Part shown: one piece after another, positions 44,970-50,498 of the stretch
How positions within the stretch are numbered: the first letter of the stretch is position 1
Layout of the letters: each line of letters starts with the position of its first letter
NCBI RefSeq assembly: GCF_029350975.1
Contig: NZ_JARKMR010000001.1
Location: 1 to 64,000 of the forward strand
Source of the DNA: Maribacter zhoushanensis
Lineage (GTDB): Bacteria > Bacteroidota > Bacteroidia > Flavobacteriales > Flavobacteriaceae
DNA: 64,000 nt
Reading direction: 5' to 3'
The notes under the pieces: generated by a model
Databases searched by the model: none
The model's input: only the letters and a program-made list of their open reading frames with translations
Told to the model about the DNA's origin: nothing
Made by a program: the position numbers and the translations under genes

Positions 44970-47900
44970 TTAGTTTGCCAATACCAGCTGTTTCTTTAAT
45001 AAATCTTTTATTTCGGGCTTACAACTACCACACCCCAAACCTGCCCCGGTTTCTGAACATAATTTGTTGAAATCAGAGCAGCCGCCATTGATAGCATCAA
45101 TAACATTGCCTTCACCAACTTGACTACATGAGCAGACCAATTTCCCCTTTAACGGCACAGATGTGGATGCTCCACGCAATAATTCGTCTCGTTTTTCAGA
45201 GAGTTCTATTTCTTCTTCTATCAACCTTTTAAACTCTGCAAACTCATTTTTATCGCCCATTAAAATGGCACCTTTAAGCGTATCGTCTTTTACAATACAT
45301 TTCTTGTAGAAACGCTTGCTAACATCCATAAGGATAATTTCTTCATATGAAGAATCGCCAATTGGTGAGTTGACCATGCCAATGCTGCAGAGATCTAAAT
45401 TTTCGAACTTTAAAATATTCATTAAAACAGACCCGTTGTAAATACTGCTGAAATCGCCAAGAATAAAATTTGCCGCAATATCAGCTTGTTGTTCAGCTGC
45501 CGAGGTAATTCCGAACAACGAATTTTTGTATTCCGCTATTTCCCCGAGTGCAAAAATAGAAGGGTCGCTACTTTGTAAGTATGAATTTACAACGACTCCT
45601 CTACGGGTATGAACCCCTGTCTGTTTTGCCAGTTCTATATTTGGTCTAGTGCCTATGGCATATACAATTGCATTACACTGAATGGTACGTCCTGTTTTCA
45701 GGTTTACCAAAAGGCTATGTTTTTGTTCTTTATCTTCAAAAACGGTACTTACTTCATTATCAAAATATAGATTAATACCGCGTTCCATAACATCTTCTGC
45801 CAACAAACGACTAGCCACGCTATCTAATTGGCGCTCCATTAATCTGGGCGCTCGCTGAATAATACTGATGTTGATATTTATTTTCTTCAAAGCAGCCGCA
45901 AGCTCCAACCCTAGAAGTCCGCCACCTACAATAACCACATTCTGATCTTTTGCCTGCAAGCCCGTTTCTAATAGATATTTTCTAAGTTTATCAGCATCGC
46001 CTCTTTCACGCATGGTAAAACGGCCCGGTAATTTTATTTGTACATCACTTGGTATAAAGGCTCTACTACCGGTGGCCATAATCAGCAAATCATAATTATG
46101 CTTTTCTCCTTTAGAATCTATTACTGTTTTGTCATCTGCATTTACATTATTGATACCAACACCCGGGTGCAACGTAACATCTAACTTTTGTAATTCGCCA
46201 TCTTTCAGCTTTTCCAAAGCTTCCCACGAGAGTTCATCACTCACATATTCCGGTAACAAGACACGATTATAAAATGGGTCTTTTTCCTTTGAAAATACAT
46301 GAAGCTCATCTAGGCTATTCTTCTCTCTATATGATTGAATAAAACGATAGGCTGCGGCACCAGCACCTATGACCACAACCTTTTGCTTTTCTTTCACGAA
46401 CTTGGTTACCTCAACGGCACAGTACTTAAAATCTGGTTCTTTGGACACTGGATCTACCAAATCATTGGTCAGGTTATTTGCTCTACCAAAATCATTGTTC
46501 AAAACCTTGCCCCAGTGCATAGGTAAGAAAACAACAGATTCACGAATATCATAATTAAGCTGAACCTTTACCTGTACTTGACCTCTTCTACTTTTTACAA
46601 CCGCAATATCTCCTTCCCTAATCTTTCTTAGATAAGCATCTACCGCATTCATTTCTAAATACGGTTGGGGAATATGGGTCAATAACCTTTTCACCTTACC
46701 TGTTTTAGTACGGGTATGCCATTGATCACGTACCCTACCAGAATTTAATATCAGCGGATAATCACTATTTGTTTCTTCAGATTTGTTGTACAATGTACTA
46801 GGCGCATTAAAATGTGCCTTTTTATCGTCGGTCAAGAATTTACGGTCTGTAAATAACCTTGGTGTTCCTTTGTGTGTTTTATGTGGTACAGGCCATTGAA
46901 AACTACCTTCATTTATCAACCTTTCATAAGACAGCCCAGAGATATCTATATCTGTGCCTTTTGTCAATAAACAGTGTTCATCATAAACCTCACTACTATT
47001 ATTGTAATCAAAGCCGCTATAACCCATTGCTTGTGCAAAACGCCAAATAATTTCAGCATCTGGCAGTGCTTCACCGGGAGCATCTATCACTTTAGGTAAA
47101 TAACTAATTCGTCTTTCTGAATTGGTCATGGTACCTTCCTTCTCTAACCAACCCGCAGCAGGCAGTAATAAATCTGCAAATTTGGTAGTCTCTGAGTTAT
47201 GGGATATGTCTTGAACGACAACAAACTTTGCCTTTTTTAAAGCTCTTTCTACTTTGTTAGAATTAGGCATACTTACCGCTGGGTTGGTGCATACGATCCA
47301 AACTGCTTTTAGCTTTCCTTCATCAAGGGCATCGAACATTTCTGTTGCTGTGTACCCTGGTTCGGCTTGAATTTCTCCGCCTCCCCAAAAGTCCGACACT
47401 TCTTTTCTATGTAAAGGGTTACCTAAATTTTTATGTGCCGCCAACAAACTTGCCATGCCACCTACTTCTCTACCGCCCATGGCATTTGGCTGACCGGTTA
47501 ATGAAAATGGTCCTGATCCTGGTTTACCTATTTGACCTGTTAATAAGGATAGGTTTAATAGCGATACATTTTTGGCTACACCAATAACACTTTGGTTCAG
47601 CCCCATGGTCCACATACTTATGAACTTTTTGGCATTACCAATATATTCTGCCGCCTTACGAATATCAGCAATAGGAATACCGCATTTTTTTGCCGCTTCT
47701 TTAAGCGATAGGCTATACGCCATTTCTTTACAAGCTTCAAAATTGGCAGTGTGCTTTTTAATGAAAGCTGTATCTATTTTTCTTTTCTCTATTAACCTAC
47801 GGGCAATAGCATTGAATAGAATTACATCTGTACCCGGTAATATTTGCAAATGTAAATCTGCACCGGCACAAGTCTGTGTTTTACGAGGATCTACTACAAT

Positions 47901-48500
47901 TATTTTTACCTGCGGATTCTCTTCTTTATGCTTCTCCAACCTTCTATATAAAATAGGATGGCACCATGCCGGGTTTGCTCCTGCAATTAAAAAACAATCT
48001 GCCAGTTCTATATCTTCATATGAAATGGGAACGGAGTCTTCACCCAAGGTTTTCTTGTACCCTACCACGGCAGAACTCATACATAGCCTAGAATTGGTAT
48101 CTATATTATTTGTACCAATAAATCCTTTTGTCAATTTATTGATGAGGTAGTACTCTTCCGTTAAGCACTGACCAGATACATAAAACCCTACACTATCTGG
48201 ACCGTGTTTAGCAATAATACTTTTAAAAACTGCAGCGGCACGCTCAAAAGCGGCATCCCAAGAAACACGTTGCAATGGGTGATTTCTGCTCCATTTCATT
48301 TCAGGATATAGAATTCTATCTGTAGTATCTTGAGCTACGTAGTTGAGATTACGCCCTTTGGTACAAAGCATACCTTTATTAGATGGATAATCTGGATTAC
48401 CATCTACCGAAATAGTTCCTTTTGTATCAACATCTACAAGTATACCGCAGCCTACACCGCAATAGGAACATATTGTTTTATGAGTTTTATTACTATTCAT
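44970..48500 (-). CDS. Assimilatory nitrate reductase fused to a NirB-like NAD(P)H flavoprotein and BFD domain
   Basis: This 1176-residue protein contains a whole electron path. Numbered from ATG 48500, residues 1-690 are a Nas/NapA-type molybdopterin reductase with 4Fe-4S ligands C11, C14, C18 and C46 and Mo-ligand C140 in NSRLCMSSA. About 690-1090 is a pyridine nucleotide-disulphide-type FAD domain (VVVIGAGAAAYRF, VVIVGGGLLGLELA) like the N-terminus of NirB/NasB. The end (CSCSQVGEGNVIDAI ... GLGCGSC) is a BFD-type 2Fe-2S domain. NAD(P)H could thus reduce nitrate in one polypeptide. An in-frame ATG 39 bp upstream adds residues ahead of the usual start. Operon with the rubredoxin protein. Confidence 0.9.
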   Translation of the reverse strand: MNSNKTHKTICSYCGVGCGILVDVDTKGTISVDGNPDYPSNKGMLCTKGRNLNYVAQDTTDRILYPEMKWSRNHPLQRVSWDAAFERAAAVFKSIIAKHGPDSVGFYVSGQCLTEEYYLINKLTKGFIGTNNIDTNSRLCMSSAVVGYKKTLGEDSVPISYEDIELADCFLIAGANPAWCHPILYRRLEKHKEENPQVKIIVVDPRKTQTCAGADLHLQILPGTDVILFNAIARRLIEKRKIDTAFIKKHTANFEACKEMAYSLSLKEAAKKCGIPIADIRKAAEYIGNAKKFISMWTMGLNQSVIGVAKNVSLLNLSLLTGQIGKPGSGPFSLTGQPNAMGGREVGGMASLLAAHKNLGNPLHRKEVSDFWGGGEIQAEPGYTATEMFDALDEGKLKAVWIVCTNPAVSMPNSNKVERALKKAKFVVVQDISHNSETTKFADLLLPAAGWLEKEGTMTNSERRISYLPKVIDAPGEALPDAEIIWRFAQAMGYSGFDYNNSSEVYDEHCLLTKGTDIDISGLSYERLINEGSFQWPVPHKTHKGTPRLFTDRKFLTDDKKAHFNAPSTLYNKSEETNSDYPLILNSGRVRDQWHTRTKTGKVKRLLTHIPQPYLEMNAVDAYLRKIREGDIAVVKSRRGQVQVKVQLNYDIRESVVFLPMHWGKVLNNDFGRANNLTNDLVDPVSKEPDFKYCAVEVTKFVKEKQKVVVIGAGAAAYRFIQSYREKNSLDELHVFSKEKDPFYNRVLLPEYVSDELSWEALEKLKDGELQKLDVTLHPGVGINNVNADDKTVIDSKGEKHNYDLLIMATGSRAFIPSDVQIKLPGRFTMRERGDADKLRKYLLETGLQAKDQNVVIVGGGLLGLELAAALKKININISIIQRAPRLMERQLDSVASRLLAEDVMERGINLYFDNEVSTVFEDKEQKHSLLVNLKTGRTIQCNAIVYAIGTRPNIELAKQTGVHTRRGVVVNSYLQSSDPSIFALGEIAEYKNSLFGITSAAEQQADIAANFILGDFSSIYNGSVLMNILKFENLDLCSIGMVNSPIGDSSYEEIILMDVSKRFYKKCIVKDDTLKGAILMGDKNEFAEFKRLIEEEIELSEKRDELLRGASTSVPLKGKLVCSCSQVGEGNVIDAINGGCSDFNKLCSETGAGLGCGSCKPEIKDLLKKQLVLAN

Positions 48501-48545
48501 TTTATCAATGATAAAGAATGGTTCAGAAGTATACTGCAAATTATA

Positions 48546-48571
48546 AAAAGTACGTATAAATACGTACTTTT
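48546..48571. promoter_or_regulatory. TACGTA-N4-TACGTA operator of the nitrate reductase operon
   Basis: Arms AAAAGTACGTA (48546-48556) and TACGTACTTTT (48561-48571) are perfect inverted repeats with a 4-base spacer, the half-site spacing of Crp/Fnr proteins. Its inner edge is 51 bp upstream of the reductase start. A near -7 box (TATAATTTG, minus strand, 48538-48546) abuts it on the gene side, so it sits where a -33 element would be. Confidence 0.8.
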
Positions 48572-48722
48572 TTATCGTAAATGTTTTAGATTAAATCGCT
48601 TGATTCGCAATTTTGTTAAGGTAACACTGAGAATTAATCAATAAATAGGAAAGTGAGGTGGTGAAATGTTAAAGTGAAATGTTGACTGGGTGAACTTTAA
48701 AGAGAATGCTTTTAGGCGGAAT

Positions 48723-49217
48723 TTATTTCTTTTTCCAATCTCTTACTTTTACTCCTTTACTATACTTGACTTGAGATACCGAAAATCCTTTTTCACTTAT
48801 TTCATCATTTCTCAATTCAGACTCTTCCATAGTACTTTTGCTATTAAATTCAATATACGCATCAAGTTTAAGCGATTCAGAATTCCAGAAGAAAAAATAG
48901 CTATTCAACTTCGTGTGAACAATATTTAAATATGTGCTGATTGCATTACTTTTTGAAAGATTTTTCATTGCAAGGTCCCACGTCTTAAATTCATCTTTTG
49001 TAAATTTCGAAGGATTTATGTCCCTTGCAATATTCAATCTAAAGGTGTAAAGATTTTGTAATTCTGTTCTTGGTTTGGAAAATCCTTTCTGAAATAAAAC
49101 TTCATCATATTGCATATCCAAAGCACACTGTTTTATTTTATCATCAGGATATGTCTTTAATTTAGCAAGGACTTCAGTAAATGTCATGTGTTTCAAAACA
49201 TTATTTAATATAACCAA
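48723..49217 (-). CDS. Hypothetical protein beyond the response-regulator tail remnant
   Basis: I do not recognise this 164-residue product. It has no signal peptide. Helical stretches (EVLAKLKTYPDDKIKQCALD) lead to a Trp/Phe-rich central part (WDLAMKNLSKSNAISTY, SYFFFWNSES) and a Lys-rich end. ATG 49187 (MTFTEVLAKLK) is an alternative start. It is AT-rich compared with the nitrate genes around it and lies right after the degenerate response-regulator tail, suggesting arrival with the same insertion. Confidence 0.5.
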   Translation of the reverse strand: MVILNNVLKHMTFTEVLAKLKTYPDDKIKQCALDMQYDEVLFQKGFSKPRTELQNLYTFRLNIARDINPSKFTKDEFKTWDLAMKNLSKSNAISTYLNIVHTKLNSYFFFWNSESLKLDAYIEFNSKSTMEESELRNDEISEKGFSVSQVKYSKGVKVRDWKKK

Positions 49218-49227
49218 ACAAGGCTAT

Positions 49228-49301
49228 AAATCAAATTATGCCTCTGTGATTTTTATAAAGGCCATTAAGGTTTTTTACTTGCATGTAGGCATTAAAATAA
49301 A
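49228..49301 (-). pseudogene. Degenerate copy of the response-regulator 3' end
   Basis: Bases 49228-49301 align to 49805-49880, the last ~75 bases of the response-regulator gene, with about 62 identities in 74 columns and two single-base gaps. On the minus strand it reads M-Q-V-K-N-L-N-G-L where the gene reads M-D-V-K-N-L-I-D-L, then shifts frame. The copy lies downstream of the 49316-49768 gene, so that gene is bracketed by the intact tail and this remnant. Confidence 0.8.
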
Positions 49302-49315
49302 GCCTATTATTTAGT

Positions 49316-49768
49316 TTACTGAGTTACGAGGATGGTATAAAGTCCATTTTCCTCATTCAATTCAAATTCAGCGTTTTCAATGCTAATGTCATTATACCTC
49401 GTGAACTCACAGCAATCTTCAGAAGTTCTTTCCGCGTCAACGATTAAATTTAAAATATCAATGCCAGATACATTTATTAAAACATCTACCTTTTCGGTCT
49501 CCCAGCCTATTGAGTTCAATTGAATCAGGTTAAGATTATTCTCATCAATAAAATCAAATTCTAAATTAGAGTTGTCGGTAAGGTTTATAACACTAATTTC
49601 ATTGGAATTAAAGGTCTCGTTTGTAAAAAGATTTTCCATGGTCGTTTTGTCAACCAATTCAAAGCTGAACCCATTTGGTGGTGTAAAACAATCTTTATCT
49701 CCACAATCATCACAAGATTGCAAAATCATAACGAACGTAACAAGGGCTATTATGATGCTCTTTTTCAT
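49316..49768 (-). CDS. Hypothetical lipoprotein inserted behind the response regulator
   Basis: The 150-residue protein has a lipobox (LQSC, Cys19) followed by a Cys-rich start (C22, C27) and a beta-rich part with a later CC pair (SEDCCEF). I do not recognise the family. It starts 34 bp after the response-regulator stop and is followed by a degenerate copy of the regulator's own 3' end, so it looks like cargo of an insertion at the gene's tail. Composition is AT-rich. Confidence 0.55.
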   Translation of the reverse strand: MKKSIIIALVTFVMILQSCDDCGDKDCFTPPNGFSFELVDKTTMENLFTNETFNSNEISVINLTDNSNLEFDFIDENNLNLIQLNSIGWETEKVDVLINVSGIDILNLIVDAERTSEDCCEFTRYNDISIENAEFELNEENGLYTILVTQ

Positions 49769-49802
49769 TTAATGTATTTTCTTACAATATGGTAAAAAAT
49801 AC

Positions 49803-50498
49803 TTAAATCAGATTATGCTTCTGTGACTTTTTAGAAAGGTCTATGAGGTTTTTTACATCCATCTTACGCATTAAATTAAAACGATGTGTTTCTATAGTAC
49901 GTTTGCTATTTTGAAGTTTCTCTGAAATCTGCTGATTAGTCAACCCTGATAACACCAATTCTAACACTTTTAATTCTTTATTGGTCAGGTCAAAGACATT
50001 GTCACCTGTTTTACGTGGAGCTTCTTCTTTAACAACCTCTTTTTTAGCACCCAATAAGTTATTTACAAGAACATTACTTATGTCTCCGCTAAAATATTTA
50101 CCGCCTTCTCTTACCGTATGTATTGCCTTTATAAATTCTGACTTATCGGTATCTTTCAATAAATACCCATTGGCACCTGAACTTATTGATTTTAAGATAT
50201 ATTCTTCAGAATCATGCATAGAGAGTATAATGGTCTTTACCTCTGATTTACTCTTGGTAAGTTCTGCAACGGCATCTATACCGTTCATTACAGGCATTCT
50301 AATATCGATAATTAAAATATCTGGAGATACTTTACCTACCAATTCAATAGCTTCTTCACCATTTGCAGCTTCACCAATTACTTCCAAATCAGATTCAGAT
50401 TCCAATAAAGAACGGATTCCGTCCCTTACCAAAGCGTGATCATCTGCCAATACTATCCTCGTTGTTTCACTCAAAATATAGGTAATTATACGTAACAT
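49803..50498 (-). CDS. NarL/NreC-type LuxR-family response regulator
   Basis: The protein has a receiver domain with ADDHALVRDG at the start, the phosphoacceptor aspartate in ILIIDIRMPVMNG (about 64-76), and a C-terminal LuxR-type helix-turn-helix (LTNKELKVLELVLSGLTNQQISEKL) near 170-194. Regulators of this type control nitrate or respiration genes, matching the island. The ATG at 50498 gives eight extra residues; a TTG at 50474 (MSETTRIVLADDH) would fit the family start better. No sensor kinase is in the window. Confidence 0.85.
   Translation of the reverse strand: MLRIITYILSETTRIVLADDHALVRDGIRSLLESESDLEVIGEAANGEEAIELVGKVSPDILIIDIRMPVMNGIDAVAELTKSKSEVKTIILSMHDSEEYILKSISSGANGYLLKDTDKSEFIKAIHTVREGGKYFSGDISNVLVNNLLGAKKEVVKEEAPRKTGDNVFDLTNKELKVLELVLSGLTNQQISEKLQNSKRTIETHRFNLMRKMDVKNLIDLSKKSQKHNLI

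What the first reader, a model, noticed from the sequence alone, without database searches (positions are those of the whole stretch)
49228..49880. Response-regulator tail duplicated on both sides of an inserted lipoprotein gene
The last ~75 bases of the NarL-type gene (49805-49880) recur at 49228-49301 in the same orientation with about 62/74 identities and two single-base gaps; the copy is frameshifted. Between the two lies a hypothetical AT-rich lipoprotein gene. This is the signature of an insertion at a gene's 3' end which keeps the host gene intact and leaves the displaced old tail as a scar. The 16% divergence suggests that the incoming DNA brought its own tail from a relative, as integrative elements do at tRNA ends, but here without an integrase.
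Basis: seen in the sequence. Interest (0 to 1): 0.75.

Follow-up and report, generated by a model that had tools for sequence, protein, structure and literature searches.

The report
Gene-tail scar at a gene-swapping site
In a marine Maribacter bacterium, a small lipoprotein gene sits between a regulator gene and a decayed second copy of that regulator's last 75 bases, most likely a leftover of ordinary recombination at a spot where related species carry different small genes.

Summary
The repeat is real: 49228-49302 and 49805-49881 align with 63/75 identities and two 1-base gaps; 0 of 1000 shuffles reach the score. The stretch between the NarL-type regulator (RR) and the nitrate reductase gene (NAS) is a cargo hotspot in Maribacter: genomes carry the lipoprotein (LIPO), ORF164, a 225-aa or 237-aa gene, combinations, or nothing. 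A LIPO-less relative (G027) has RR directly joined to ORF164, and the DNA behind the window's remnant is collinear with that behind G027's RR (0 of 300 shuffles), so the remnant is best read as a displaced RR end. G006 has LIPO and the same, better-preserved remnant before other cargo. In one genome pair the last 52 bases of RR differ together with the cargo; a second pair points that way weakly. This fits homologous recombination; no recombinase was found in the cargo proteins tested. But 12 of the 15 differences between the tails are private to the remnant, i.e. decay. Closest known kinds: integrase-free recombination hotspots and insertion with long target duplication. A clean new example, not a new system.

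The parts
49803..50498 (-). Intact NarL/LuxR-type response regulator (RR), 231 aa; its last ~75 bases are 49805-49881
   Evidence: Pfam Response_reg 1.6e-28 and GerE 1.4e-16; RR followed by NAS in 76 of 108 family loci examined
49805..49881 (-). Proximal (functional) RR tail, one arm of the direct repeat
49316..49768 (-). LIPO: 150-aa predicted lipoprotein (LQSC lipobox read by eye), cargo gene, start codon 34 bases after the RR stop
   Evidence: ORF; homologues directly behind RR in G006, G025 and G010, at other loci in G014 and G008; no Pfam match at E <= 1 or NCBIfam match at E <= 0.01
49228..49302 (-). Distal RR-tail remnant (scar), out of frame, two 1-base deletions
   Evidence: homologous, less decayed remnant in G006 with the same LIPO junction
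49303..49315 (-). Short LIPO 3' flank up to the LIPO/remnant junction; this flank is shared with G006 and G025, the remnant only with G006
   Evidence: sequences compared by eye and by the alignments printed there
48723..49217 (-). ORF164: second cargo gene behind the remnant; in G027 its homologue follows RR directly
   Evidence: 85% aa and 418/465 nt to G027; found only in G000 and G027 of 36 genus genomes and only in G000 of 397 family genomes sampled
44970..48539 (-). NAS: nitrate reductase-like protein fused to a NirB-like reductase part; far boundary of the hotspot (true start probably near 48497)
   Evidence: found behind RR in 76 of 108 family loci

Best explanation
The RR-NAS gap is a cargo hotspot that changes content by homologous recombination in conserved flanks, not by an integrase. 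Shown: a LIPO-free relative with RR joined to ORF164; a second genome with the same LIPO/remnant junction; different cargo between genomes nearly identical in RR, with the end of RR differing too. Inferred: a DNA fragment carrying the end of RR plus LIPO recombined on its left within RR, while its right end joined (illegitimately, or through an already existing LIPO-tail unit) to the resident RR about 75 bases before the stop. This left RR intact, LIPO behind it, and the displaced RR end with ORF164 further on. The displaced end has no evident function and has decayed by substitutions and frameshifts. The order of the two cargo arrivals is not settled.
For: Repeat real. G027: no LIPO, one tail, RR and ORF164 directly joined. 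The 34 bases behind the window remnant, compared with the RR flanks of 16 genomes, match G027's (0/300 shuffles) and not the window's own (250/300). G006: LIPO, the same short flank and junction, a remnant at 90.8% to the RR tail, then other cargo. G004/G033: rpoB only 92.0% identical, RR nearly identical, yet of 13 differences in the 700 bases up to the RR stop 9 are in the last 52 (binomial 3.7e-8, boundary chosen after seeing the data), with cargo 225 aa vs 237 aa and identity resuming before NAS. G010/G011: LIPO vs 237-aa cargo, 3 of 5 differences in the last 16 bases (1.2e-4, likewise post hoc). No recombinase among the cargo proteins tested. No LIPO relative in the plasmid and phage searches, nor a close one in viral contigs.
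Against: G025 carries LIPO with full downstream sequence but no significant remnant (best of three comparisons 101/1000 shuffles), so LIPO does not need a second tail. The tail's own sequence does not settle its source: 65 vs 63 of 76, and column 57 favours the window's own gene over G027. G004's last 52 bases differ by 5 from G032 (same cargo) but also by 5 from G027 and G006 (other cargo), so tail and cargo are not tightly linked. Outside RR, single 60-base windows also fall to 80-90% in G004/G033 and to 88% in G010/G011, where the tail window itself is 95%. The G006 remnant's flank has only a weak match to any RR flank (best 30/300, G011).
Confidence: 0.62

Rival explanations
1. Reverse order: LIPO was already behind RR, and a later fragment carrying an RR end plus ORF164 inserted behind LIPO, so the remnant is the incoming tail, not the displaced resident one.
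For: The remnant and ORF164 are linked as in G027; G025 shows LIPO behind RR without ORF164 or a detectable remnant.
Against: G006 has the same LIPO/remnant junction without ORF164, so the remnant predates at least one downstream cargo change, unless the junction moved as a unit.
Confidence: 0.17
2. Insertion with long target duplication: LIPO inserted at the RR end by a mechanism that copied about 75 bases of the resident target, as described for restriction-modification genes in Helicobacter; both tails come from the same strain.
For: Insert without a recombinase flanked by a direct repeat of the target, with a single-copy site in relatives.
Against: In G004/G033 (strong) and G010/G011 (weak) the RR end itself differs along with the cargo, as expected if donor DNA replaced it; G025 has LIPO without a detectable duplication.
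Confidence: 0.13
3. Tandem copy of the whole RR gene, with the second copy later deleted down to its last 75 bases.
For: Same orientation as RR and a common start point in two genomes.
Against: No longer remnant in the 15 genus loci with readable downstream sequence, and no convincing second tail in the 108 family loci except the window itself (limits in the report).
Confidence: 0.06
4. Chance resemblance, or similarity to another gene family.
For: AT-rich sequence raises background similarity.
Against: 0 of 1000 shuffles; a better-preserved remnant at the same place in G006.
Confidence: 0.01

Closest known systems
[quoted passage not shown] 2017, PMC5635113; passages seen)
   Same: Conserved flanking genes, cargo turnover, no recombinase found in the cargo tested, signs of recombination in a flanking gene
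   Different: Very small hotspot (one to a few genes), compared here between species of a genus, and one state keeps a second copy of the flanking gene's end
Insertion with long target duplication (Nobusato et al. 2000, known here through passages of PMC1643837, PMC4978471 and PMC3031569; original not seen)
   Same: Gene insertion flanked by a direct repeat of the target, seen by comparing genomes
   Different: Described there for restriction-modification genes; here a lipoprotein gene, and relatives suggest that donor DNA can carry its own target end
Homology-facilitated illegitimate recombination (abstract and outline of PMC3240628 seen)
   Same: One homologous and one illegitimate end would give this layout
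   Different: Not demonstrated here; by eye the junction shares at most a base or two, and its pre-insertion partner is not known
Integrative elements that insert at the 3' end of a gene and restore it (recalled, not from a call)
   Same: Host gene stays intact, displaced end on the far side
   Different: No integrase among the cargo proteins tested, a single small gene, and the downstream edge is shared hotspot sequence

Membership tests
Homologous-recombination hotspot without integrase | Different cargo between the same two conserved genes in related genomes | tested here: met
   six cargo arrangements or none between RR and NAS in the genus; gap at most 300 bases in 62 and larger in 14 of the 76 family loci where NAS was found
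Homologous-recombination hotspot without integrase | No integrase or transposase in the cargo | tested here: met
   for LIPO, ORF164, the 225-aa and 237-aa proteins (both cut at 220 residues) and the three G006 proteins; G018's three ORFs, cargo in other genera and the rest of the window were not searched for recombinases
Homologous-recombination hotspot without integrase | Recombination traces in the flanking core gene | tested here: met
   G004/G033 strong, G010/G011 weak, both with boundaries chosen post hoc; no genome-wide comparison rate was computed
Insertion with long target duplication | Relative without insert has a single copy of the target | tested here: met
   G027 and the empty-site genomes
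Insertion with long target duplication | Both copies derive from the recipient's own target | tested here: inconclusive
   At 3 sites the remnant agrees with G027 against its own gene, at 1 site the reverse
Integrative element at a gene 3' end | Carries a site-specific integrase | tested here: not met
   No recombinase match for LIPO or ORF164
Homology-facilitated illegitimate recombination product | One homologous end, one illegitimate junction with microhomology | tested here: inconclusive
   Junction seen in window and G006, but the pre-insertion sequence behind LIPO is unknown

The most novel reading that the evidence does not exclude
The RR 3' end works as a reusable, integrase-free docking site: cargo genes linked to a copy of the RR tail add on through RecA-dependent recombination in those ~75 bases, so that cargo can stack (RR-LIPO-tail-ORF164) like cassettes, with the tail copy as portable homology arm.
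Probability: 0.1. Interest if true: 0.6.

Novelty: new member of a known kind. Interest (0 to 1): 0.33.

Why it matters
It gives a readable case of how single genes may enter a chromosome without a recombinase: recipient-like and product states, and a possible donor-like state (G025), are present in one genus. Partial tails of core genes beside cargo could serve as a simple sequence mark for spotting such events elsewhere. It does not change any known mechanism.

Tried and rejected
A second short repeat, 48825-48845 vs 49890-49910 (19/21), was set aside as probable chance (5/500 shuffles reach its score, and it is not collinear). The idea that LIPO always brings duplicated gene ends was tried on 31 LIPO-family loci, of which 30 were compared (L068 gave no LIPO match and dropped out): only the window locus (L041) has a gene-tail repeat; short hits in L043, L056, L058, L063 and L067 were not followed up, apart from printing the L043 stretch. 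A 30-base hit in L085 was set aside as chance: it falls in other sequence that looks like a Crp-type gene by eye, and 16-base or weak translated hits in L127, L141 and L153 were not followed up. In the genus search, further tail hits were short and weak (E 0.03-0.5) and not followed up. A decayed remnant in G025 was sought and not found significant. Searches for LIPO on plasmids, phages and viral contigs gave nothing. Literature searches that ran; none of the papers listed is on this locus by title, and searches listed none. In one search the RR stop of L072 and L094 was misplaced; others (translated search; gap count) used corrected stops, and the same genomes' loci are. The value 351 for G004 vs G011 is an artefact of an ungapped comparison and was not used. 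A structure prediction of LIPO was not run.

Full report
OBSERVATION. The window stretch 49228-49302 repeats the end of the RR gene (49805-49881) in the same orientation with 63 of 75 identical aligned bases and two 1-base gaps; none of 1000 dinucleotide shuffles comes near its score. In 64 kb only one other direct self-match reaches E <= 1e-4, in two ORFs that look like ABC ATPases by eye. The remnant has a stop in every forward frame. LIPO (49316-49768) lies between the copies, and ORF164 (48723-49217) follows the remnant.

THE PLACE. The window belongs to a genome (G000) whose best named RR relatives are Maribacter (92-96% amino-acid identity, loci L072-L076). In the genus search 20 of 36 genomes had a match; 17, the window's own included, match in RR itself, and two of these (G010, G026) are cut by contig ends. 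Cargo between RR and NAS: LIPO, remnant and ORF164 (window); LIPO, remnant, a DUF6526 protein, a small protein that looks RHH-like by eye (no Pfam match) and a ParE-family toxin (G006); LIPO alone (G025); LIPO up to a contig end (G010); ORF164 (G027); a 225-aa gene (G004, G032); a 237-aa gene (G011, G033); none (G008, G014, G016, G020, G023, G031); three other ORFs without NAS in the fetched stretch (G018).

ORIGIN OF THE REMNANT. In G027 RR is followed directly by ORF164. The 34 bases behind the window's remnant, compared with the RR flanks of 16 genomes, match those behind G027's RR (0/300 shuffles), weakly those of G032 (11/300) and G004 (31/300), and not those behind the window's own RR (250/300). 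ORF164 is 418/465 identical to G027 at DNA level. So the remnant sits where the end of RR sits in G027. Two clear tails were found in 2 of 15 genus loci with readable downstream sequence, the window and G006, both with LIPO; 0 of 15 show two tails without cargo. The third LIPO genome with full downstream sequence, G025, shows no significant remnant. The 108 family loci add no convincing case apart from the window itself, with these limits: the 28 loci hold 1500 bases downstream, L075 holds 441, L148 none, and a remnant decayed much beyond the window's would be missed.

SHARED JUNCTION. The bases behind the LIPO stop are alike in window, G006 and G025; then window and G006 run into the RR tail at the same point, while G025 does not. 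The junction is therefore older than the difference in downstream cargo, or has moved as a unit. LIPO identity among the four genomes (81.1-90.1%) is close to that of the RR body (81.8-87.8%).

RR ENDS AND CARGO. G004 and G033 are only 92.0% identical in rpoB but nearly identical in RR up to 53 bases before its stop: 4 differences in the preceding ~650 bases and 9 in the last 52, after which the cargo is different and identity returns before NAS (binomial 3.7e-8). G010 and G011 show 3 of 5 differences in the last 16 bases before different cargo (1.2e-4). Both boundaries were chosen after seeing the data, so these odds are optimistic. Against a tight link, G004's end is no closer to its cargo-mate G032 than to G027 or G006 (5 differences each), and outside RR other 60-base windows also dip, to 80-90% in G004/G033 and 88% in G010/G011. 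Within RR the other windows of G004/G033 are 98-100%.

DECAY. Of 15 differences between the window remnant and its gene, 12 are seen only in the remnant when 13 other intact tails are compared; at 3 sites both states occur in other genomes and the remnant agrees with G027; at one further site it disagrees with G027 and agrees with its own gene. The 16% divergence is mainly decay. By sequence alone the remnant is closest to G027 (65/76; own gene 63/76; bootstrap 0.77), and G006's remnant likewise (72/77 vs 69/77; 0.95); G027 may simply be the least changed tail.

MECHANISM. Best supported is replacement by homologous recombination in conserved flanks, with one event that ended inside the resident RR tail and so stacked cargo instead of replacing it. 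Shown: states that look like before and after in different genomes, and one clear exchange tract reaching into RR. Inferred: the route of DNA entry, RecA dependence, the order of the two cargo genes. The general pattern is described by Oliveira et al. 2017 (PMC5635113, passages): many hotspots without recognizable mobile elements and with recombination at flanking core genes. Insertion with long target duplication (passages in PMC1643837, PMC4978471, PMC3031569) is the closest known layout, and homology-facilitated illegitimate recombination (abstract of PMC3240628) a possible route.

VERDICT. It is a good example of a known kind.

Noticed in passing
48545-48572: A perfect 13-base inverted repeat with a 2-base centre just upstream of NAS; the same stretch is nearly unchanged in the related genomes printed. 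It may be an operator of the nitrate gene.
   Followed up: no
L043 (G036:C13), LIPO homologue at 79% aa: There the lipoprotein gene lies between long imperfect hairpin-rich stretches that look, from memory, like integron attC sites; this could be an earlier carrier of the gene. They were printed and folded, but the attC resemblance was not tested with a model.
   Followed up: partly
L025 / G006:C1, behind its LIPO and remnant: A DUF6526 protein, then a small protein without a Pfam match that looks RHH-like by eye, then a ParE-family toxin occupy the same hotspot.
   Followed up: partly
G010:C64 start and G010:C46 start: The contigs of this draft genome end on both sides of the hotspot (inside LIPO and just before NAS), which may reflect strain mixture in cargo.
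   Followed up: partly
LIPO family in other genera: Homologues in 36 of 397 family genomes sampled, patchy; the contexts looked at are unrelated loci. No Pfam or NCBIfam match for the window protein.
   Followed up: partly
L083 and L088 (Zobellia), RR-NAS gap: The same gap holds a 447-aa gene that looks, from memory, like an alpha-amylase family protein.
   Followed up: no
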